This document shows, one piece after another, positions 30,535 to 44,616 of a stretch of DNA of 64,000 bases. Within the stretch, counting starts at the first letter, position 1, and each line of letters starts with the position of its first letter. The notes under the pieces are model-generated. The model saw only the letters and a list, made by a program, of their open reading frames with translations. It ran no database searches and had not been told where the DNA came from. The DNA comes from Filosporella fistucella (taxonomy: Eukaryota > Ascomycota > Leotiomycetes > Helotiales): assembly GCA_030077755.1 (NCBI GenBank), contig JAQJZZ010000008.1:186001-250000 (forward strand). Reading direction: 5' to 3'. A program made the position numbers and the translations under genes.

Positions 30535-32242
30535 TTATCGACCACTAACCCTCCTCTCATACCACCTCGCCGGCGGATAAACAAGCAACGTTAACGCACC
30601 ACTCAAATAAATCCCGACATCACCACCAAACCCTCCAAACTTCCTCGCAATAGGCCCAACATACCATGTCTGGCTCATGCCCGTCACTCCTCCGGCCAAA
30701 TATCCGACCAATAACGCCAGAACAGCCGCTACTCCCCAGGGAAGCTTAGACGGTATATCCCAAACATTCAGATTATACCCAGTTCCTTTTCTGAATACCC
30801 GATCTTCGATCAAAAGAATGATGGTAAATGAGATGGTCCAGTACCCAAGAAGAGACACGAAGTTCGAGACTATCAGGGACAAATGCTCACGACCTGCGAT
30901 GGCGAGAACGGCGATTACGAGGGCATTGATAAAAGACCAGATAAAGCGAGGTATGGCGTGGAAATAGTGACCTAGGAGTTGGAGAGATAGACCAGAGGAG
31001 TAATTTACTGCTATGTTGTTTCCTAATACAGAAAATACGAAGAGAACGAGACAGGTTTTAGACCAGCCTACGGGATGGAAGGATTCTCTGAGTAGACCAC
31101 CTAAACCGTGATCTTCATACGCTTCGTTTAGGATTGGATTCGCGACTTTGTTTGAAAGTGCTGCGTTCCCTAGACAGGCGCCGATGACTGTTACGAAGAT
31201 AGTCGGGATACAGATACCGAAGAAAGTTAGGAAGAAGACTTTCCAGGCTTTGGTGTTAGCGGGATAATTGCAGTAGTAATCTGATGCCATGGAACACCAG
31301 CCACTCGCCGACGAGAAATTGATTGCCAGGAAAGAGAGAAAAGAGCCTGATATGATGAGATTGTTCTCATGAGCAGTGAGAGTTGGATCTCGGAGGGCGG
31401 GAAGAGAGGGATCGACTTTGGATCCGATTTGCCCGATCAGAACAAGCATCAGGATGAATGTCATGATCCAGGAATATTTCTCGTAGGTGTGGATGAGCGC
31501 GAAACCGAAGACTGAGACTAGGTAGCCGAAGACTGCGATGAGGACACAGCCTACTGCTATGGTCATTGTGTAGTTGGAAACAGCGGCCAAGATCTGGCCT
31601 ACTACGACTGTATTTACCACTGCGAAACCGCCTCCGATCACGACGTTGAGTACGGAGCAGAGTTTGGCACCATAGAAACCAAATGAGTAGCGGGATGTTG
31701 CGATGGCTCTGAGACCGAGCTGGATGTGTCAGATCAAGTTGAGCTATAGAGGAAGAGAGGCATACCTTTGGACCAAGAGTACCACAGAAAGCAGTACACA
31801 TAGCACCGAGAACAATCCCCACCACAATTGCGGCAACTGATTGTCCCAGGGACAAACCGAACTCAGGTCCTAGGAAGCCAAGAGGTAGGACTCCAACATG
31901 GCAATTGAGAGACCACCATAGGAAAAAGACATTGATAATCGAAGGTGGTTTCTTGTCTTCCTCATGGATTCGATCAATTCCCTGTGTCTCAATTCCCATT
32001 TTCTCATCGAGCCATTCTTCTCCCCTCCGTAATTTCCGTAAGAAACCCTTCTTCTCCTGAAGTTCCCTTGCTTTGATAACTTCTGCGGACTCCTCGTTCA
32101 CATCAGGAACAGCGAAGTGATCTGAATCCGTTTTAACAGAGTAATTGCCTTTTGCTTCAGTATCAACCCCGCTTTCGAGATCATGGGGAGAGACATGATG
32201 ATGTTTGGTATCGGCCTGATCGCCATGAACGAAGTCAGACAT
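30535..32242 (-). CDS. NCS1 family purine-cytosine permease
   Basis: Model complement(join(30535..31719,31766..32242)), 553 residues, with one 46-nt intron. The N-terminal 110 residues are hydrophilic (MSDFVHGDQADTKHHHVSPH) and about 12 membrane helices follow. NCS1 signatures of the Fcy (purine-cytosine/H+ symporter) branch are INVFFLWWSLNCHVGVLPLG, GPEFGLSLGQS, CTAFCGTLGPKLGLRAIATS, RYSFGFYGAKLCSVLN, FSSASGWCSMASDYYCNYP and SFHPVGWSKTCLV. Homologues import cytosine, purines or related bases at the plasma membrane. Substrate cannot be decided here. An ATG at the gene's own frame further upstream (32350) would add residues without NCS1 similarity, so 32242 is chosen. Confidence 0.9.
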
Positions 32243-33113
32243 TGTTTCGGGAATGTTCGTTTCGCAATGACTGAGTAAGTCGAGGATGTAGTATCGATTA
32301 TAATAGGAAACACGATTCAACGTCGTGAAAAGGAGACAGGGACAATGCATATGTCCTACACCCCCCTCCCGCAGCGCCTAATCTTCTAAAACAACCTAGT
32401 CCGACAAATCATATATTGCATCCTCTAGATTTTCGTACAACCTGATAAGGAAACTCCTCAAATCAGGGACAGGAAATAAACTTCGTACAGGGGAATATTG
32501 ATAAGATAGACTGCATCAGGAAGGTCACTATGTAGCTCAGAACTCTAGCGGCCGACCGGCTGGTGGCATGCTGACGGGGACGCCGTTAGGTGGGCGGAAC
32601 GCGCCATACAGATGCGTTTCCTGGGGGGCGAGCTCCGAGAATAAGCTTCCTTGGACATGGCTAAGGCGATAAGCGGTTCTTGGAAGAGCTTGATTTCGGA
32701 GTGGCGTTGGATGATGCTTCATCATCTTGTGGATATGTCGAGATTATATGATGATTTAAGAAGAATTGCAAAAAATTGAAGATCTGGGAGAATGTTGGAA
32801 AAGGAGAGAGCGTTATGTGTTATGTGAGGGTTCGATATTGGTGGGACTTGTGCAATATGAGGGGCGTTAGGAAGAGAGTTCTGCGAATGTTTCAAAAGTG
32901 GGTGGACGGTAGTTGAAGTTGGACAGGGTACTTATATCACGTGGTGAAGTTATACCTTTGTGTACACATTTTGGTAGCAAATGCCTTAGAGGGCCAAACC
33001 CTTTGTTGATTGTTGAATTGTTTATTGGATTGGTGCAGAGTACATAGAGAACTCGAACTATAAGGTAAGGCCGATTAGTAGTTACCTCCACGTGATAGGT
33101 GATAAACTTTTCG
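32243..33113. other. Permease promoter and flank
   Basis: It holds the 5' region of the permease and one doubtful small frame listed separately (32537-32725). Nothing else is seen. Confidence 0.45.
32537..32725 (-). CDS. Possible 62-aa protein
   Basis: A minus-strand frame MMKHHPTPLRNQALPRTAYR onward ends GAFRPPNGVPVSMPPAGRPLEF. The Pro-rich, well-mixed composition is more protein-like than most short frames here, and the ATG context (caagATGatg) is good. It has no domain and no neighbour context. It could be a real small gene, or a leader frame of the permease transcript, which runs in the same direction but starts below it. Confidence 0.3.
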   Translation of the reverse strand: MMKHHPTPLRNQALPRTAYRLSHVQGSLFSELAPQETHLYGAFRPPNGVPVSMPPAGRPLEF

Positions 33114-33663: not shown

Positions 33664-36024
33664 TCAAATCTCCCCCACCAAACACCTTGCCGCTTCTCCA
33701 ACTGTATCACAAACAGTCTCCACTCTCTTGAACGTCCTCCCTTTCTCTCCCAAGCCTTTCCTAATCATGCCCTGGTAAAGTCCACTTTGCATCAATCCAC
33801 CAGCAAGTACCAACATCGCCTCCCCGCCTCGTACCCCACTTACCTGAACGAGGTCTTGCAGGCACTTTATCAAGGAGTGGCTGCCTTTTTCCAATATATT
33901 CCTAGCTACTTCGCTCTCTGAACTGACATCAAGAACGATTCTCGCCACGCCAGCAATACGTTTCGTGATATCCTCCCCATCCTCTGTGCTGGCAGTTTGA
34001 CAGGGTGAGAGAATAGAGGATAGGAGATCGATTCCTTTCTCCACTCCCGAAGGACTCCAATCAATAGCAATACCAAAGTACTCCAATATCCTAACTGTCA
34101 AGATATCCATCTCATTGAGAGTGACGTTATTTAGGTCCTTCGTTTCGTTTTTTTGGAGCATATTCAGTATATCTACTCTGTCCAAGGCAAATCTAATAGC
34201 CTCTCTCCCGATCCAGAACCCGGATCCGTCATCGCCTAAGAGATGGCCCCATCCTCCTTTACGCGATATACGTTGATATTCGTTTCCCGTTCCTTCTCTC
34301 TCCAAATTCGAGTTTTTGATCAGGCGATAGTGCATACATACAGCCCCCGTGCCCGCCACAAGAACAAAAATTTCTTTTACATGGCAACCATCATTCGCTG
34401 CTAAGGCAGCAGCTGGACGGACTAACATCTCAATGTCATTTCCCACTTTCAAACTCAATCCATTTATTTTCCTCTTGAATAGATCTTCCATCGAAGTATT
34501 CAGAGCAAGTGTTTGAGTAGGTCGATCATACCCCGCTGTTCCTATCCATGTTTTTTCGAAATTGAATGATGATAGTGATTTCTGGTATGATGGGGGAAGA
34601 GCAGATATTGCATTGGTGATAGACAAGGAGATTTGGCGGATGGCGTGGTGTATTGGGAGTGTGGTTCTGCGCGGAAAAGTGATTAGTTTCTTTGAAAGAG
34701 GGACATTGTGAAGTGAGGGGTAGATACATGTTACAGCCTCCTGCATAGCCTCTTCCTTCTATTCCACTCTTACTCAGAATCAGGGCAGCTGTTTTACTCC
34801 CTCCCGCATCGATACAGAGAACGAATTTTTCATGTAAAATCTCCTGATCGTCGCCATTGGTAATCACATAATTTCCATTTTCATATGTTCTCTCCGTTGA
34901 TGAAAGCACTGTAGATAAAATACCTCCTGCCTTTTCTAATCTTTCCTTTGCTGACTGAGCCGTAATATTAAGAGAGAGAGCAGCAACTGCTATTTTGACA
35001 CTTCCTCCGCATTCTTGGGAAAGGGTATCTAGCTCTGCGTCTGTGAGTGAAGAGCTCAAAGGACATAAGTTACGGATGATGTTTCTCGCTCGTTGTTCGA
35101 GTTTGAGGTTTGTGGCTTTGAGGTCGATCATCTGATTCATTAGCGGTCGTCCATACATAAGAAGACGGAATTGCAACGCAGACATCTAGGGAAATACCAG
35201 CATCAAAACGGTTATAAAAAGACATACCATATTCCCAAAAGTCTTCCCAACTCTAATCATAACTCCGGTACTAATCATATTCAAAACCATCTTGGTCCCC
35301 GTCCCAGCCTTCATCCTAGTACTCCCTGTCACAACTTCGGGCCCCGTAACAATTTCTACCGTTTTATCCGCTTCCTTGCTCATCTCAGATGGGCTTACAC
35401 ATGCTATTCCAATCGTTAGACATCCTTTCTCTTTAGCTATCCTTAAGCTCTCAAGAACGTATGGGGTTCTTCCAGAAGCGGCGATTCCGATCAAGGTGTC
35501 GATTGAGGATAAGGGCGGGGAGAGACTTTGGAGGTCATTTTGTGCTGAGGAGAGAGAGTCTTCGGCACCTTCGAGGGCGGAACGGAGTGCGGTGTCACCG
35601 CCTGCTATGAAGGAGGGAAATTGTGAGGCGGAAACAGAATACGTTGGTGGGAGCTCAGAGGCGTCGAGGACGCCAAGACTGTAATGGTTTTAGGGAGTGT
35701 TTTTCAAATGACGCAGCAATTGATTTCGAGATAGATCTGAAAAAGGGAAGATTTCAAAGTTCGAGATAAGGAGAACAAGAGAATATACCGGCCACTGGTC
35801 CCAGCACCAACATATATCATTCTCCCACCTTTCCTTACCCTTTCCGCCACCAACTCAATCGTTTCAGCGATTACAGGTAAACATTTCTCTACTGCCTGTG
35901 CGACTGATTTATCCTCGCTATTGATGATGCGACATAATTCCAACGTATCAACTCTATCAATATCCTTGCTATTCTCATTCCGGTGTTCAGTCTGAAGGTG
36001 GGAGAGCTGGATTTGAGGTGCCAT
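33664..36024 (-). CDS. Fusion of MurNAc-6-phosphate etherase (MurQ) and BadF/NagK-type sugar kinase
   Basis: Model complement(join(33664..34666,34728..35131,35228..35678,35789..36024)), 697 residues, frame-true at every junction. Residues 1-300 are a MurQ/SIS domain: [80 protein letters not shown] and [19 protein letters not shown]. Glu87 (DASE) and Glu118 (EGAED) have the same 31-residue spacing as the catalytic Glu83/Glu114 of E. coli MurQ. Residues 330-697 are a BadF/BadG/BcrA-type kinase: phosphate motif CIDAGGSKT (Asp337), [26 protein letters not shown] and adenosine motif [13 protein letters not shown]. MurQ cleaves the lactyl ether of MurNAc-6-P to GlcNAc-6-P and D-lactate. Kinases of this family phosphorylate GlcNAc and, in MurK, also MurNAc. 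No targeting signal is seen, so it is probably cytosolic. It is divergent from the transporter at 36885. Confidence 0.92.
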
Positions 36025-36884
36025 GACTCCAATTGAGCCAGTTTGAATTCCGTCAAGGCTCAGAAGCTAGGTGTGTTGTGAGAAGCTGCACAATATTGAA
36101 GAGTGAGAAGAATTCATGATCATGTGATTCTATCTCAGGGGCGGGATGTCAGGAGGTTATCAACGGCCTTCAATGTCACTATCCCACTCTCCGCAAAGTG
36201 ATCGACAACGCCAAGCAGCCACTTCTTCGGAACGAGTCTTCCACTTTGCCTCTTTTCTACTAACTCCCCTTTGCTCCGTATCCTATTACTTATTTATTTC
36301 CCTTCTTCTGAGTATCTGACCACCACTATTGAAGGAAAGGCAATGTTACGTTACCAAGTTATCGTTTCAGTGTCTCACTCCCAACTTCCTTAATTCTAAC
36401 TTTTTGATACATGGGCCGGATTGGCATTAGAAATTAGAATAAGATTTGAACCTTATTTGAATTTTTATTTTGCTCTCAGGTACTGTCCCGTATGCTCGGA
36501 TTAAGGGATTCAGGGTTCGATTACTCGGGAACGTACTTCTGGAAGGTTAATGTTGTATGTGCTGTTAAGAGAACGAAAAAGAGGCAAAAAGTAGGTAAGT
36601 AACAGTAAAGCGGATGAGACGTCACTTTCTTAGTTAGATCTTGGCTTACCGAGAATATTAGGAGAGATAGGGAGCTTATCTACCGTGAATACGAGGTTAA
36701 TAACTAGATGATCATCACATCTACTTTACAACTTCCCAATATACAAACTTCAGCACAACTTTGACACCACTCCATATCCTCTTTTGAAAGATAACAACGT
36801 CTTTGAAAACCATCTTTCTGTTTCTGCAACCAATTACCAATACATCAAAGGAATCAACATCAACGAGCAAGATCGATAGTAAGG
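36025..36884. promoter_or_regulatory. Shared divergent promoter of etherase-kinase and transporter
   Basis: 860 bp with no coding signal lies between two divergent start codons. Pyrimidine-rich tracts flank both sides, as usual for fungal leaders. I could not identify a specific operator. Co-regulation of the two genes is inferred from the arrangement only. Confidence 0.55.
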
Positions 36885-38540
36885 ATGGCGAAAGACGATG
36901 CACAACCGGTTGAAATGCACCATATGGATGTCGAGGATGGCGCGCAGCCAAAGAGTCGAGTAAAAGAATTATATGCGCATCCATGGACCCAAATCATTCT
37001 GATCAGTATGATATGTTTCTGCTGTCCTGGTGTATGTCCCCCTTCCCAATATGCATCTCGATTCTCAGTGACCTCCTCCCCCCTCTATCTCAACTCTTTC
37101 TTATATCTGATCTCAAAATCTAATAAACCACAGATGTACAACGCACTGGGTGGCCTAGGTGGTTCCGGCCAAGTCGACCCTACAGTCGCAGCCAACGCAA
37201 ACGTAGCACTCCTTTCTGCCACCGCAGCAACAGCGCTCTTTGTCGTTGGTCCTCTGTTTGGATATGTTGGGCCCCGAATTACGTTCTTGCTGGGAGGTTG
37301 GACGTATGCGCTTTACAGCGGGTCATTGTTGAACTTCAATTGTATGTTGAATTTTCTTTTTCCTTACTATTCCTTGCCCTTAAGTTATCTTGAAATCAAT
37401 ATATATAATCAAATAAACGCTAATGGTATTCACAGATCATGACAATGGCTCCTTCGTCATCGCTTCAGGTGCTATCCTGGGTATCGGTGCTTCGATGCGT
37501 AAGTCCCCTCTCTATTCTCAAATTCCCAACCCAACCTAACGCATCTAGTATGGGTGGTCCAGGGCGCCATAATGACAACCTACGTATCCGAATCTCAAAA
37601 AGGCCGCGCCATAGCCGTCTTCTGGATAATTTTCAATCTCGGCGGGGGCGTCGGTTCCCTCGCTTCCTTCGGTCTAAACTATCATTCCAAGACCGCCACC
37701 GTCTCTGACAGCACCTACATCGCGCTCATGATCATCATGCTTTTCGGCTGGGTTCTCGGAGTGTTTATCTGTTCGCCTAAACGCATAAAATTAGCTCAGT
37801 TGCATGCAGTGGTGGAGAAAGAACATAGATCGTTTAAGGACACTGTGATGATGAGTGTAAAGACAGTAGCGAAGTGGAGGGTTGCATGCATGTTACCACT
37901 CTTCTTCTGCGCTAATGTGTTTTACTCTTATCAACAAAACGATGTTAATGGCCTTACATTTAATATCCGGACTCGATCCTTAAACGGGGCTTTATACTGG
38001 ATGGCTCAAATGTTCGGCGGTCTCCTCATTGGCGTTCTTTTGGATCTCCCATTTTTGACCAGAACTACGAGAGCAAAATTGGGATGGGCGGTGCTGTTCA
38101 GCACAGGAATGATAATCTGGGGCGGAGGCTACGCGTTTCAGAAATGGCAAGATAGACGACTAGCACAGGGTCACAAGCAAGATATAGACTACACGTCCGG
38201 GTCTCTCTCCACCGGGCCAATCTTTCTCTACATTTTCTACGGCGCATACGACGCGTTCTGGCAAGGTTTTTCATACTGGCTTATCGGCACGGAATCGAAT
38301 TCTACGGCTAGAGCAGCAGTGCTAGTAGGGGCGTATAAAACTTTCCAGGCGACGGGCGGAGCGATGGCGTGGAGGATCAATGCGTTGCATAAAAGTGGGA
38401 TGACGCAGTTGGGGATGAACTGGGGACTTTCGATGGGCGCGCTGGCGGTAGTCCTGCCGACTGTTTGGACGGTGAAGGAGACCACTGGGACCACGGATGT
38501 GGATGAGGAGAGGAGGGAGGGGAAGATCGTTGAGGAGTAA
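36885..38540 (+). CDS. UNC93-like major facilitator transporter
   Basis: Model join(36885..37031,37134..37341,37436..37498,37549..38540), 469 residues. The cytosolic N-terminus (MAKDDAQPVEMHHMDVEDG) precedes 10-12 membrane helices. UNC93-type signatures are WTQIILISMICFCCPGMYNA with LGGLGGSGQVDP, ANANVALLSATAATALFVVG, LGGWTYALYSGSLL, GAILGIGASMLWVVQGAIMT with TYVSESQKGRAIAVFW, and FGGLLIGVLLDLPFLTR. Fungal members are plasma-membrane transporters of mostly unknown substrate. The gene shares a promoter with the etherase-kinase gene and is followed on the same strand by a secreted amidase-like hydrolase, so import of a cell-wall sugar or muropeptide is a reasonable hypothesis. Confidence 0.88.
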
Positions 38541-39636
38541 AGAGGCGATGGTGGCTGCGAGGTGATGGGAGGGTTGGAGTTCTTTATGCGGACGACTTAG
38601 GAGCTTTCACCCCCAAGGGAACCTGCGGATGAAAAAAAGAGGTAAACTTCATGCCAGAGATGGAGAATTTGGCTGCGGAGAAGTTACCGCTTGCTCAAGA
38701 TAGATAAATGAAAACAAGTTTAACAGAAAAATGTAGAACCCTACTTCACCACCCTCTTTAATCTTTAATTTTTGGCATTGTTATGGCCTTGAGAAAAATG
38801 GGATATTTGCTCAAGGGGAATGGCACCTGCTAGATGCACATAGAGGATACTCTAGCAAAGAATCCGGAGATGAGAAATACAACCCGACCACCCGCCTCAA
38901 ACTCTTCCAGTAAACCCAGAAGCATGAATCCAGAAATAAAGTTATAAGAATATGATAGTACAATGGTGACACTTCAAGAAGATGAAAGAAATATATCGGA
39001 TGGCAAAGAAATGCGACACAGAATTAACTCCTTACACTTTCTTCCCACCTCCTCAGAATTTACCCAGTGACCTGTACAGAGGTATAGAAACCCTGTATCC
39101 CACAAACCCTTCAATTTCCCGGATTCCCTCGATTGACCTCCCAGCCTCAAAGGTCTCCGTCTCCCCCATTCCGTTATTCCATTTCTAAATCTCCCTCTTC
39201 CCCAAACTCGAAATCCCAAAACCAGATCCCCGGGCTTCCGACAAAACGTGCCCATGTCGGTCATCTCATCCATTTCACCTAACCAAGCAAGTCCAAGCGC
39301 TTACCGTTCTTCATCCAAAGTCCCTTTCTTGGCATGCCATCAGACGGGATGGGAGTCGAAGTGCGGGGCATGTGGTAATGTGACATGGCTAATATAGCTC
39401 CGGCTTATTTTGTGCTAAGGTACTCTGTACCATTTCGTACCTGATACCTCACGAAAGGGGCAAATCAAGAGTGGGATGATGGGCAAAAATTGGGTTGTTT
39501 GAGGAAGGTGAGATAAGTGATATTTCATCTCGTTGGAGGTCCAATATGTCATCCCATTCTTCCTCCGCCGTGTTGGTGGTTTAAAGATACGGATGTGAGC
39601 TGCAGCAGGGAATTTCAGTGGGATACGGTGTCAGAT
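38541..39636. other. Intergenic
   Basis: 3' flank of the transporter and promoter of the secreted hydrolase. No supported gene or repeat. Confidence 0.5.
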
Positions 39637-40953
39637 ATGTTCGTCGAAACGTTTTTCCCTTCAAAGGTCTTTCTCAGCCTCGTGGCAACGGGCTGTGCAT
39701 TTGCATCATCGCCAACCACACACGAGCTTGTTCTCCAATATGCCTCTCCGGAATCCGTTGGGATGCTTTCTAAGCCTCTTCACGATATGGTTGCAAACTT
39801 GACCGCGTATACACATCCAGCCAATTACAGCTCCTATTCCCACTACCTCATTCATCCCATTGAACCTGGATCAGCGACACTAGTGGGACGTAATTCCAGG
39901 ATTGTTTTGGCGTTTGCGGTTGGAAAGAGGAATCTATATGCAGATGTAAATGGTACATTCCTTCCAAAGCATCAGCAGGAAGATGCAACACTCGATACGG
40001 TGTATGATATGGCCAGCCTGACAAAATTATTCACTGCGGTAGCCGCGCTGCGACAAATTGATACTGGAAAGCTAGAGCTAAATGCTACGGTCGTATCGTA
40101 TATCCCGAATTTTGCGGTCAACGGGAAAGAGAATATCACTATTTTGCAGCTTTTGACACATACTAGTGGTTTCGATGCTGATCCAGTACCACCCCTCGGA
40201 AACTACTCCACATATGATGAGAGAATCAATGCCATAATAACCCAAAATATCATCAACTCTCCAGGAAGCACCTACCTTTACTCAGATCTGAACTTTATGA
40301 CTCTCTGGCAGGTTTTGGAGACGATCACCGGGTGTAAACTCGATGAACTCATTTATGATTACACCAAACCACTTGGAATGAAATCCACGTTTTTCAATCG
40401 TGGAAATATCGAAGGTCCACGAAATCGGTACTATCATAGAACGGCGACACAAGAATTTCAGATCGATGTTCTGGGACCAGATGAGCCTCAGCGTCCACAG
40501 CCTATTCGTGGAACTGTCCATGATGAAAATGCCTGGTTTGTCAATGGCGTTTCAGGGCATGCAGGCCTCTTCTCCACTGTTCCAGACACGGCCATCTTCT
40601 GCCAGATGATACTCAATAATGGAACATATGGTGGTCGTCGATATCTCTCCCAAGAAGTTGTAGATATGATTTTCACGAATTATAACACCAGGTTTCCTGG
40701 GAACGAACATGGTCTCGGTTTCGAATTGAATCAATATTATACTGCTGGACCGATGCGCAGTTTGTTGACAGCAAGCCATACTGGCTTTACGGGAACGACG
40801 TTGGTGATCGATAGGGGAAGTAACACTTTCTTCTTGCATTTTGCGAACCGAGTGCATCCCGATAGGAGGTGGAGCAGTAATAATATCGTCAGAGAGGCTG
40901 TCGGATACTGGGTTGCAAAGAGCTTAGGGAGGGATGTCGCATTTCCAACGTAA
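39637..40953 (+). CDS. Secreted beta-lactamase-fold serine hydrolase, AmiE/YbbE-like
   Basis: Single exon, 438 residues from the ATG at 39637, which begins a signal peptide (MFVETFFPSKVFLSLVATG, cleavage near AFA-SS). An in-frame ATG at 39517 would add 40 residues without signal character. Catalytic motifs of class C beta-lactamase-fold hydrolases are present: SLTK (Ser127, Lys130), YSD (Tyr215) and HTGFTGT (His381). The extra stretches ILQLLTHTSGFD, RGTVHDENAWFVNGVSGHAG, LFSTVPDTAIFCQMILN and FANRVHPDRRWS are typical of the bacterial AmiE/YbbE branch. B. subtilis AmiE is an N-acetylmuramoyl-L-alanine amidase encoded beside murQ. Eight or more NxS/T sites agree with secretion. An esterase role is the main alternative. 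Confidence 0.88.
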   Translation: MFVETFFPSKVFLSLVATGCAFASSPTTHELVLQYASPESVGMLSKPLHDMVANLTAYTHPANYSSYSHYLIHPIEPGSATLVGRNSRIVLAFAVGKRNLYADVNGTFLPKHQQEDATLDTVYDMASLTKLFTAVAALRQIDTGKLELNATVVSYIPNFAVNGKENITILQLLTHTSGFDADPVPPLGNYSTYDERINAIITQNIINSPGSTYLYSDLNFMTLWQVLETITGCKLDELIYDYTKPLGMKSTFFNRGNIEGPRNRYYHRTATQEFQIDVLGPDEPQRPQPIRGTVHDENAWFVNGVSGHAGLFSTVPDTAIFCQMILNNGTYGGRRYLSQEVVDMIFTNYNTRFPGNEHGLGFELNQYYTAGPMRSLLTASHTGFTGTTLVIDRGSNTFFLHFANRVHPDRRWSSNNIVREAVGYWVAKSLGRDVAFPT

Positions 40954-42720: not shown

Positions 42721-43758
42721 CTAGATCTCAAGCACGAGTTTTGTTCCGCTAACCCCTGCCTTCAACTCGTCGAGTCCTTTATTCAAGCCCTCTAGCCCAC
42801 CAGCAATAATCTTCACCCTTGGACTCGGCACGAATTCACCAGAGACCAACTTCTCTTTGAGCCACTTATTGAATACAAACGCAAAATGCGCATTCCTCTC
42901 TGCAGGGTCAGTCGCCACAGCCACGAAAGCGACTCTGAAACCCGCAGGTGCCTCGAAGTCAGCTGGCAAAGGAGGAGCCGATGCTAACTTCGCTTCGCCG
43001 CTTTCCTTCACCTGTTCCAGTATGTCCACACACTCATTCAGAGCACCTGCTACCGCCATGTATCCAATATTGATCGTCTCGCCTTCCTTCTTGGCCGCCT
43101 GTACGATCTGGTCCACCACATCTGCGTCGTGATAGTCGAAAGTATGCGTCGCGCCGAGAGTCTTCAGATATTCATGATGTGTTTTGCTGGCTGTTGCATA
43201 GACTGAGAATCCCATCAGCTTTGCGATCTGAATCACTGCACTTCCAACGCTGCTCGAGCCACCCCATACCAACAAGCCTTTCTTGTCAGCAGCCGGCACC
43301 TTTGTATCGAATGGCAGCCCAATAGAATACCATCCAGCAAAGGTGGTTTCCACAGCCATACCAAGTATCGCAGCTTCATTGTCGCTTAGGGTATCGGGTA
43401 TTGGACTCAGGTTGGCTGATGGCAAAAGGGCAAATTTCTGGAAAGCACCATAATCAGGTTTACCCGCTTTATATGCAGACATTGCGAAACCAGCTATCCT
43501 CTGGCCAGGTTTCAGATCTGGATTGGCGACCGAAGATCCAACAGATACGACCTTTCCAGCAATATCAGAACCGATAACTGCAGGATACTCGCCAACCATG
43601 AAACCGAAATCGCGAGAGTAGTAGTCGATGGGATTGAGAGCAATAGAACTGATTTCGACAAGGACTTCATCGGCACCTGGTTTTGGAGTTGGTCTCTGCA
43701 CAACCTCGAATTGAGAACCCTTTGAGGGAATGATTGCTGCGATATGTTGATTTGACAT
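42721..43758 (-). CDS. Zinc-independent MDR alcohol dehydrogenase/enoyl reductase-like protein
   Basis: Single exon. The ATG at 43758 (ccaagATGtca) gives 345 residues. The N-terminal GroES-like domain has VLVEISSIALNPIDYYSRD and AVIGSDIAGKVVSVG. The Rossmann domain has the nucleotide motif VWGGSSSVGSAVIQIAKLMG followed by YATAS, the NADP-type pattern of quinone and enoyl reductases. The zinc-binding Cys/His pairs of classical alcohol dehydrogenases are absent. Many fungal members act as stand-alone trans-enoyl reductases next to polyketide synthases, but no such cluster is here, so a general reductase is likelier. The same frame runs upstream to ATG 43902 and would add an Arg/Ser-rich leader (MRSIIQFTSIRRAIPFCLLI) that resembles a mitochondrial presequence. 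Confidence 0.88.
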   Translation of the reverse strand: MSNQHIAAIIPSKGSQFEVVQRPTPKPGADEVLVEISSIALNPIDYYSRDFGFMVGEYPAVIGSDIAGKVVSVGSSVANPDLKPGQRIAGFAMSAYKAGKPDYGAFQKFALLPSANLSPIPDTLSDNEAAILGMAVETTFAGWYSIGLPFDTKVPAADKKGLLVWGGSSSVGSAVIQIAKLMGFSVYATASKTHHEYLKTLGATHTFDYHDADVVDQIVQAAKKEGETINIGYMAVAGALNECVDILEQVKESGEAKLASAPPLPADFEAPAGFRVAFVAVATDPAERNAHFAFVFNKWLKEKLVSGEFVPSPRVKIIAGGLEGLNKGLDELKAGVSGTKLVLEI

Positions 43759-44616
43759 CTTGGCTTTGTAGGAGAGTCGTAAACTGTTTGAGGTAAGAAA
43801 TGGGTTGAGTACTGATTGTTTCGCAGGATGACTAGATTGATTGATCAAGAGACAGAAGGGAATGGCTCTTCTTATAGAAGTGAATTGTATTATCGACCTC
43901 ATCTAAAAGAGACAAAGGCAGCAAAAAGTACGGAGTTTGCGTCAACAATACGGAGTTTGATCTGGCGTCACGACTCTTTATCATGTTGAGACTTTATCTC
44001 CGAGTGGGGTTGTACGATTAGAATCATCAAGACTTGATGTCGCTGCTGATAAGGTACCAATATCTCTAAATGCTGTGTTACGTGCAGGGTAGCATTTCAA
44101 GCATCGGAATGGCGCCACTCATTGGCTATTCCTCTCGGGTGGGCCCGTAAGTGCCGCAGAGCTAACCTGACTTCGTATTACCCGCTCAACGCTAACCTAT
44201 TTTGTATCAAGGACGTCAAGAATTGTACGTATTAACCCCTGTTTAGATTTACTTGAGGAATGAAAACACAGAGTGCCTCCAATGACTCCCATTCCAAAAG
44301 TCGGGGATACTGATATGCACGAGTAAGTTTTCGGCCAATTGTCGTAGTTTTTGTTTTAGTGTATGGCTCCTGATTCAGTCAAGCTATAGAACTAGTATGC
44401 ACACCAATTTTTAGCGATCTCGGTCTTCCGGCCTCAGATTTCGAAATATGAATACAAGTCACAGAGCTGTAAGCTAGGGTCACTATTCTCTTTACTCCGA
44501 TAAGAGTTCGGGTGAGGTCCAGGTGGCCATTCAATCTCGAAATCCCCGTTCACTTCATTCGCATCAGTTTCTATATTGTGTGTTGCTCTGACGAACACCC
44601 CTCGTCAACATTACCT
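43759..44616. other. Intergenic
   Basis: It holds the promoter of the MDR gene and the 3' flank of the 2EXR-like gene. No supported feature. Confidence 0.5.

What the first reader, a model, noticed from the sequence alone, without database searches (positions are those of the whole stretch)
33664..40953. Candidate fungal gene cluster for using bacterial peptidoglycan sugar (MurNAc)
Three neighbouring genes encode a MurQ-type etherase fused to a sugar kinase, an UNC93-like transporter (divergent, shared 860-bp promoter) and a secreted AmiE/YbbE-like hydrolase. Established: in Bacillus subtilis murQ and amiE lie in one operon for MurNAc recovery, MurQ yields GlcNAc-6-P plus D-lactate, and kinases such as MurK make MurNAc-6-P. 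Inferred: here the hydrolase would strip stem peptides outside the cell, the transporter would import the sugar, and the fusion would convert it to GlcNAc-6-P, which enters normal GlcNAc catabolism. Fungi do not make peptidoglycan, so this would be feeding on, or competing with, bacteria. It differs from the known GlcNAc catabolic cluster, which carries a deaminase, a deacetylase and the Ngt1 transporter.
Basis: partly seen in the sequence, partly recalled or inferred. Interest (0 to 1): 0.87.

Follow-up and report, generated by a model that had tools for sequence, protein, structure and literature searches.

The report
Fungal MurNAc-use gene cluster
Three neighbouring genes in a fungus look like a kit, partly of bacterial origin, for taking up and breaking down MurNAc, a sugar of bacterial cell walls, and other fungi carry the same genes side by side.

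Summary
At 33664-40953 lie three intact genes: a MurQ etherase fused to a BadF-type sugar kinase (697 aa), a divergent UNC93/MFS transporter and an S12 hydrolase. In bacteria the enzymes occur as separate neighbours: of 80 murQ loci, 22 have the kinase nearby, 16 the hydrolase, none a fusion. The hydrolase carries YSD, found in 14 of 16 murQ-linked bacterial S12s but in 2 of 29 controls, both fused to the muramidase NamZ. A profile of 19 fungal relatives matches Clostridium MurNAc/GlcNAc kinase best among solved kinases. A GlcNAc catabolic cluster with its own hexokinase-type kinase lies 2.3 Mb away. Best reading: a fungal pathway, partly acquired from bacteria, from muropeptide to GlcNAc-6-phosphate plus D-lactate. 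All activities, the transport substrate and MurNAc preference are inferred. Eight literature searches (capped lists) showed no description of it. New variant of a known bacterial system.

The parts
33664..36024 (-). MurNAc-6-phosphate etherase (MurQ) fused to BadF-type sugar kinase, 697 aa; exons 36024-35789, 35678-35228, 35131-34728, 34666-33664
   Evidence: Gene model; NCBIfam/Pfam (715-aa model); 120 listed homologues with both Pfam domains, 39-47% identity; matches to solved MurQ and MurK
36025..36884 (.). 860-bp intergenic region between the divergent start codons of fusion and transporter (putative shared promoter)
   Evidence: Follows from the gene models; promoter function is inferred
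36885..38540 (+). UNC93-like major-facilitator transporter, 469 aa; exons 36885-37031, 37134-37341, 37436-37498, 37549-38540
   Evidence: Pfam; listed homologues 66-84% identity; consecutive locus tags with the fusion in 13 of 13 genomes
39637..40953 (+). S12 serine hydrolase (AmiE/PBP4B-like) with hydrophobic N-terminus, 438 aa, motifs SLTK (127), YSD (215), HTG (381)
   Evidence: listed homologues 60-80% identity

Best explanation
A fungal catabolic cluster for the bacterial cell-wall sugar MurNAc. Proposed steps: (1) muramidases (a GH25 gene lies elsewhere in the genome) release muropeptides; (2) the secreted S12 hydrolase removes the stem peptide from MurNAc, as AmiE does; (3) the UNC93-like carrier imports MurNAc or a MurNAc-containing sugar; (4) the C-terminal kinase makes MurNAc-6-phosphate and (5) the N-terminal etherase of the same polypeptide cleaves off D-lactate, giving GlcNAc-6-phosphate; (6) the separate GlcNAc cluster converts this to fructose-6-phosphate. 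Shown here: gene structures, family membership, conserved active-site motifs, adjacency in other fungi, bacterial counterparts as neighbouring separate genes, presence of a GlcNAc cluster. Inferred: every enzymatic activity in the fungus, secretion, the transport substrate and co-regulation. Etherase-kinase and hydrolase look acquired from bacteria; the named homologues listed for the carrier are fungal, and none was found in the bacterial loci.
For: Etherase equivalog passed. DASE in 116 and EGAED in 118 of 120 fungal fusions, and both in the window. Profile of 19 fungal relatives (window not included) matches the solved MurNAc/GlcNAc kinase 8zo3 at 116.6 bits over the whole domain, against 86.5 for Sulfolobus hexokinase and 56.3 for human NAGK; the window's own protein gives 42.9 against 27.7 and 27.7. 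Adjacency: 13 of 13 fusion-transporter and 8 of 9 fusion-hydrolase tag pairs. Bacteria: 80 murQ loci, 0 fused to the kinase, kinase near in 22, S12 in 16, both in 11; about 0.7 S12 expected from 129 matches per 124.8 Mb in 25 of these genomes, a density that is a lower bound. YSD: 119 of 120 fungal, 14 of 16 murQ-linked, 2 of 29 control S12s, both fused to NamZ. Own genome: GlcNAc cluster with its own hexokinase-type kinase, GH25, FAD-oxidase_C genes that could include a D-lactate dehydrogenase.
Against: No expression, growth or enzyme data. Clostridium MurK, the best match, acts on both sugars with a slight preference for GlcNAc (PMC5790795, passage). The fungal kinase has Asn before the catalytic Asp and an AGYD loop; the Tannerella MurK paper holds that Asn and Asp at what I take to be the matching positions hinder MurNAc (PMC10465942, section 8 part 1), although Clostridium MurK has the same ND and an AGAD loop. 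The window kinase has GTGA where 119 of 120 relatives have GTGS, and the window has the longest fungal branch in the etherase tree (0.56 against 0.12-0.38). By Foldseek E-value Sulfolobus hexokinase and human NAGK rank above MurK (model of relative P0001). Fusion and hydrolase lie on contigs of unequal length in 5 of 21 pairs. The hydrolase misses the PBP4B cut-off and its fold matches family VIII esterases first. NamZ was not found. UNC93-like carriers give no clue to substrate.
Confidence: 0.76

Rival explanations
1. The fusion is mainly a GlcNAc kinase, with an etherase domain that salvages or detoxifies occasional MurNAc-6-phosphate; the cluster mainly serves GlcNAc or chitin-fragment use.
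For: The closest solved kinase acts on both sugars with a slight preference for GlcNAc (PMC5790795 passage); UniRef names many of these proteins N-acetyl-D-glucosamine kinase; two active-site positions are not those of the strict Tannerella MurK.
Against: The genome already has a GlcNAc cluster with a hexokinase-type kinase 2.3 Mb away; the murQ-linked S12 subfamily has no evident role in chitin use; 22 of 80 bacterial murQ loci have this kinase family nearby.
Confidence: 0.13
2. The protein is a glucokinase-regulator-type protein, as many database records name it, binding sugar phosphates without etherase activity.
For: Pfam labels the N-terminus GKRP_SIS_N; source names 'putative glucokinase regulator family protein'.
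Against: The etherase equivalog model is passed; solved MurQ scores 361-372 bits against at most 103 for GKRP; DASE and EGAED are kept in nearly all fungal members; a kinase domain is fused on.
Confidence: 0.05
3. The cluster is for sensing or defence: bacterial wall fragments are taken up or destroyed to modulate signalling, or the S12 enzyme acts on beta-lactams or other compounds, rather than for nutrition.
For: S12 proteins include beta-lactamases and esterases; human NAGK phosphorylates muramyl dipeptide for immune sensing (PMC10465942 passage).
Against: The beta-lactamase models listed score far below their cut-offs; YSD-type S12s go with MurQ and NamZ; an etherase yielding GlcNAc-6-phosphate is catabolic.
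Confidence: 0.06

Closest known systems
Bacterial murQ loci with a BadF kinase and an S12 hydrolase (for example Sedimentibacter L061, Carbobacillus L078, Botrimarina L039 and L055)
   Same: The same etherase, kinase family and S12 family within about 4 kb
   Different: Separate genes in all 80 loci fetched; no UNC93-like carrier found there at E 1e-4
E. coli murQ-murP-yfeW operon and B. subtilis murQ-murR-murP-amiE-nagZ-ybbC (PMC5061867, passages)
   Same: Etherase, transporter and an S12 protein (PBP4B or AmiE) together
   Different: Those bacteria import MurNAc with a PTS; the fungus has an MFS carrier plus a fused kinase, and no regulator gene in the trio
Clostridium acetobutylicum MurK (8zo3) and Tannerella forsythia MurK
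   Same: BadF-type kinase; GGWGH loop and ND as in 8zo3
   Different: Free-standing; specificity measured there, not in fungi
Fungal GlcNAc catabolic cluster (PMC4950302, passages)
   Same: Fungal amino-sugar catabolic cluster; would take over at GlcNAc-6-phosphate
   Different: Deacetylase, deaminase, hexokinase and NDT80-like factor; a separate locus in this genome
murQ in other eukaryotes: Camponotini ants (PMC13320244, passages) and the rumen ciliate Entodinium (PMC6925433, passages)
   Same: A MurQ gene or transcript in a eukaryote; the ciliate paper infers MurNAc use
   Different: No fused kinase or conserved three-gene cluster described in the passages read

Membership tests
MurNAc-6-phosphate etherase (MurQ) | Passes the curated equivalog cut-off | tested here: met
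   TIGR00274 343 bits against cut-off 302 (715-aa model)
MurNAc-6-phosphate etherase (MurQ) | Two catalytic glutamates (recalled as E83 and E114 in E. coli; not from a call) | tested here: met
   DASE and EGAED align with solved MurQ and are kept in the window and in 116 and 118 of 120 relatives
MurNAc-6-phosphate etherase (MurQ) | Releases D-lactate from MurNAc-6-phosphate | not testable with these tools
   Needs enzyme assay
MurNAc kinase (MurK-like BadF kinase) | BadF/BcrAD family, nearest to a proven MurNAc kinase | tested here: met
   PF01869 over cut-off; 8zo3 best of the solved kinases by sequence profile. By Foldseek E-value hexokinase and NAGK come first
MurNAc kinase (MurK-like BadF kinase) | Active-site letters that admit the lactyl ether | tested here: inconclusive
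   GGWGH loop as in NAGK and 8zo3, but Asn and Asp at positions said to hinder MurNAc in comparison with Tannerella MurK; 8zo3 has them too
AmiE/PBP4B-type S12 amidase | S12 catalytic motifs | tested here: met
   SLTK, YSD, HTG
AmiE/PBP4B-type S12 amidase | Signature shared with murQ-linked S12s | tested here: met
   YSD in 14 of 16 linked, 2 of 29 control, 119 of 120 fungal
AmiE/PBP4B-type S12 amidase | Passes the PBP4B equivalog cut-off | tested here: not met
   NF002968 162 bits against cut-off 385, so it is not filed as PBP4B itself
AmiE/PBP4B-type S12 amidase | Cleaves the MurNAc-L-Ala amide | not testable with these tools
   Needs enzyme assay
UNC93-like MFS carrier | UNC-93 and MFS_1 models over cut-off | tested here: met
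   46.7 and 50.7 bits
Glucokinase regulatory protein | Closer to GKRP than to MurQ | tested here: not met
   MurQ 372 bits, GKRP at most 103
Fungal GlcNAc catabolic cluster | Carries deacetylase, deaminase and NDT80-like factor | tested here: not met
   These lie at C7 2.519-2.533 Mb, not in the three-gene cluster

The most novel reading that the evidence does not exclude
Many Pezizomycotina and some Agaricomycetes carry a complete, partly bacterium-derived pathway for feeding on bacterial peptidoglycan, built around a bifunctional kinase-etherase that passes MurNAc-6-phosphate from one domain to the other and coupled to a recruited fungal carrier: an overlooked trophic link from bacterial necromass or prey to fungi.
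Probability: 0.6. Interest if true: 0.87.

Novelty: new variant of a known kind. Interest (0 to 1): 0.77.

Why it matters
MurNAc is a component of bacterial peptidoglycan. If a conserved fungal cluster consumes it, fungi can use a part of bacterial walls beyond GlcNAc, with consequences for soil carbon turnover and fungal-bacterial competition. It also bears on a 2026 statement that murQ transfer had not been reported before and is potentially unique to Camponotini ants (PMC13320244, passage): 20 fungal etherases form one clade among bacterial ones. It makes the question testable with one growth assay and one enzyme assay, and would replace the database name 'glucokinase regulator' with a specific function.

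Tried and rejected
Searching the own genome with SIS_2 (PF13580) gave no hit, probably because introns split the domain; the family was recognised from the spliced protein. The first intron-2 boundary was dropped because homologues lack the 18 extra residues. The strong Glucosamine_iso hit on C13 reads like 6-phosphogluconolactonase (my judgement of the frame), so it was not used as the deaminase. GKRP was rejected. The kinase tree did not place the fungal clade among bacterial kinases (36/39), and the etherase tree names no donor (88/52 for the group joining it to bacteria). Adjacency could not be read from fungal DNA, as I had no fungal genome to search other than the window's; locus-tag numbers and equal contig lengths were used instead, from lists cut at 120 rows, so absence from a list is not absence from a genome, and equal contig length is a proxy. 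The review of etherase distribution by Jaeger and Mayer (seen only as a reference) is not held, so an earlier mention of fungal MurQ there is not excluded.
Full report
What is there. The window is bases 186001-250000 of contig C7 in a 45.8-Mb, 19-contig genome. Introns and homologues point to a filamentous ascomycete; the best-named relatives of carrier and hydrolase are black yeasts, Leotiomycetes and Talaromyces. The three genes are intact with GT-AG introns. The etherase part passes the NCBIfam equivalog model and aligns with solved MurQ enzymes. The kinase part is a BadF-type kinase, the carrier matches UNC-93 and MFS_1, the hydrolase the S12 Beta-lactamase family.

Not peculiar to this fungus. 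All 120 homologues listed for the fusion (of 7180 scoring) carry both Pfam domains; those with names are fungi of Leotiomycetes, Eurotiomycetes, Sordariomycetes, Dothideomycetes and Agaricomycetes (classes from my own knowledge of the genera). Many are named 'glucokinase regulator family protein'. The 120 listed carriers are 66-84% identical and the 120 listed hydrolases 60-80%.

Conserved neighbourhood. I used locus-tag numbers and longest-contig lengths printed with the hits, retyped by hand. Of the 13 with comparable tags, all 13 differ by exactly 1. For fusion and hydrolase, 16 of 21 pairs have equal contig length; the exceptions are Pleurostoma, Coniochaeta sp. 2T2.1, Aphanocladium, Mariannaea and Aspergillus lentulus. 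Of 9 with comparable tags, 8 differ by 1 to 3 and Aphanocladium by 8194. For carrier and hydrolase, 10 of 23 have equal contig length and 4 of 8 tagged pairs are within 3; of the other four, Xylariales sp. No.14919 differs by 20 on contigs of equal length, and Sporothrix, Phialemonium and Aphanocladium are on contigs of unequal length. In four Xylariales (Xylaria curta, X. hypoxylon, X. multiplex, Nemania bipapillata) the fusion lies between carrier and hydrolase; in the window the carrier is in the middle; in Cadophora sp. M221 one tag separates fusion and hydrolase, which fits the window's order. So the core pair is fusion plus carrier, and the hydrolase is a looser third member. Consecutive tags in 13 of 13 genomes are far beyond chance (assuming 10,000 genes).

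The bacterial counterpart. None is fused to the kinase; by tblastn at E 1e-4, 22 have a BadF kinase and 16 an S12 hydrolase in the DNA held (up to about 4 kb on each side, less at contig ends), 11 have both, and no UNC93-like carrier was found. Both gene orders occur, often with the two frames overlapping or a few bases apart. In 25 of these genomes S12 matches number 129 in 124.8 Mb (summed by me from rounded sizes), so about 0.7 would be expected in the 664 kb of loci against 16 seen. The two counts used different programs; one search says counts of large families are lower bounds; 15 of the 25 genomes were chosen because their murQ locus has the hydrolase. The fungal fusion thus joins two enzymes that some bacteria keep as neighbours.

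Origin. In a tree of 100 etherases (midpoint root, for drawing only) the 20 fungal rows form one clade (100/99), in a larger group (97/93) with Acidobacteriota, Planctomycetota, Chloroflexota and a few others; the joining fork is weak (88/52). The two basidiomycete rows fall inside the fungal clade. The kinase tree keeps the 14 fungal rows together (100/97) but does not place them. This fits one ancient acquisition; later spread or loss is unresolved.

The hydrolase. At the second S12 motif the window has YSD; so have 119 of 120 fungal relatives and 14 of 16 murQ-linked bacterial S12s. As a control I took the 30 S12 loci that the tool handed over (of 42 matches) from eight genomes in whose murQ locus I had found no S12. 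One gave no profile match and was dropped; of 29 aligned, two have YSD, 20 have other letters and seven have gaps there. The two, L124 and L132, are fused to NamZ, the exo-N-acetylmuramidase; the murQ-linked S12 of L031 is fused to NamZ too, and those of L074 and L023 are followed by a GH3 gene. Three other S12s of the window's genome lack YSD (0 of 3). The signature thus marks a peptidoglycan-fragment subfamily, although the protein does not reach the PBP4B cut-off, and its predicted fold is nearest to EstG and family VIII carboxylesterases. A hydrophobic N-terminus and seven N-glycosylation sequons fit secretion; no signal-peptide program was available.

The kinase. By a profile of 19 fungal relatives (the window not among them) the best solved kinase is 8zo3 (116.6 bits), ahead of Sulfolobus hexokinase (86.5) and human NAGK (56.3); with the window's own 715-aa model the scores are 42.9, 27.7 and 27.7. 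[quoted passage not shown] In the alignment of P0007 with 8zo3 both have ND at the catalytic aspartate and RSGGWGH in the sugar loop; the window has RKGGWGH. The Tannerella MurK study argues that Asn and Asp at matching positions disfavour MurNAc (PMC10465942, section 8 part 1; the match of positions is mine). The Clostridium enzyme has ND and AGAD too, so this does not exclude MurNAc but argues for mixed specificity. Across 120 fungal fusions the residue before the Asp is Asn in 69, Thr in 32, Ala in 12. A model of relative P0001 (mean pLDDT 80.8, pTM 0.51) matches MurQ first; for its kinase, Sulfolobus hexokinase and NAGK have better E-values than MurK, with target-normalised TM-scores 0.79, 0.67 and 0.77. 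The window's GTGA in place of GTGS, and its branch of 0.56 in the etherase tree, the longest of the fungal rows, are a warning for this particular copy.

Other steps. A Glucosamine_iso gene, a hexokinase, an NDT80-like factor, GH3, an acetyltransferase domain and a NagA-like amidohydrolase (197 bits, below the TIGR00221 cut-off of 225.65) lie together at C7 2.519-2.533 Mb, matching the published fungal GlcNAc cluster (PMC4950302, passages); I did not look for its Ngt1 carrier. The genome thus seems to have a GlcNAc kinase already, which leaves MurNAc as the likely job of the fused one (inference). A GH25 gene is present (one stop falls within the match, where an intron may lie), NamZ was not found, and several FAD-oxidase_C genes could include a D-lactate dehydrogenase.

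Literature. Eight searches aimed at this showed no paper on MurNAc use or a MurNAc cluster in fungi; I saw capped lists with titles and starts of abstracts, for example 20 of 10,147 and 20 of 44. A Monascus paper lists murQ under chitin biosynthesis (PMC9159588, passage). A 2026 ant study says murQ transfer has not been reported before and is potentially unique to Camponotini ants (PMC13320244, passages). A ciliate transcriptome infers MurNAc use from an etherase transcript, in a culture that contained prokaryotes (PMC6925433, passages). A survey of prokaryote-derived genes in 829 fungal genomes has no 'muram' or 'etherase' in its main text (PMC11708051; supplements not seen). Three GlcNAc papers have neither word in the main text. 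The library lacks most subscription papers.

Verdict. It is a eukaryotic, fused and carrier-swapped version of a known bacterial pathway, hence a new variant of a known kind.

Noticed in passing
L132 1-4215 (+), Granulicella genome: One open frame of at least 1405 aa joins a sodium:solute symporter domain, a YSD-type S12 hydrolase and NamZ: a possible transporter-amidase-muramidase fusion in an acidobacterium.
   Followed up: partly
L124 1303-3753 (+) and L031 2-2281 (-): S12 hydrolase and NamZ in one open frame.
   Followed up: partly
Own genome C7:2519389-2532762 (L104-L106): GlcNAc catabolic cluster, 2.3 Mb from the window cluster on the same contig.
   Followed up: yes
L085 1660-2610 (-), own genome C13: Glucosamine_iso match that reads like 6-phosphogluconolactonase rather than a deaminase.
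   Followed up: partly
Window 30535-32377 (-): Two overlapping frames next to the cluster; the one at 30535-31728 matches a purine/cytosine permease family. No link to the cluster was tested.
   Followed up: no
Window 42721-43902 (-): Zinc-binding alcohol dehydrogenase family gene on the other side of the cluster.
   Followed up: no
Public records of fungal homologues: Frequent naming of the fusion as glucokinase regulator or N-acetyl-D-glucosamine kinase; one paper places murQ in chitin biosynthesis.
   Followed up: partly
Window 33664-36024: The fusion is less conserved than its neighbours: 48% against Leptodontidium where carrier and hydrolase are 82% and 78%; the other fungal pairs compared show the same trend to differing degrees.
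   Followed up: partly
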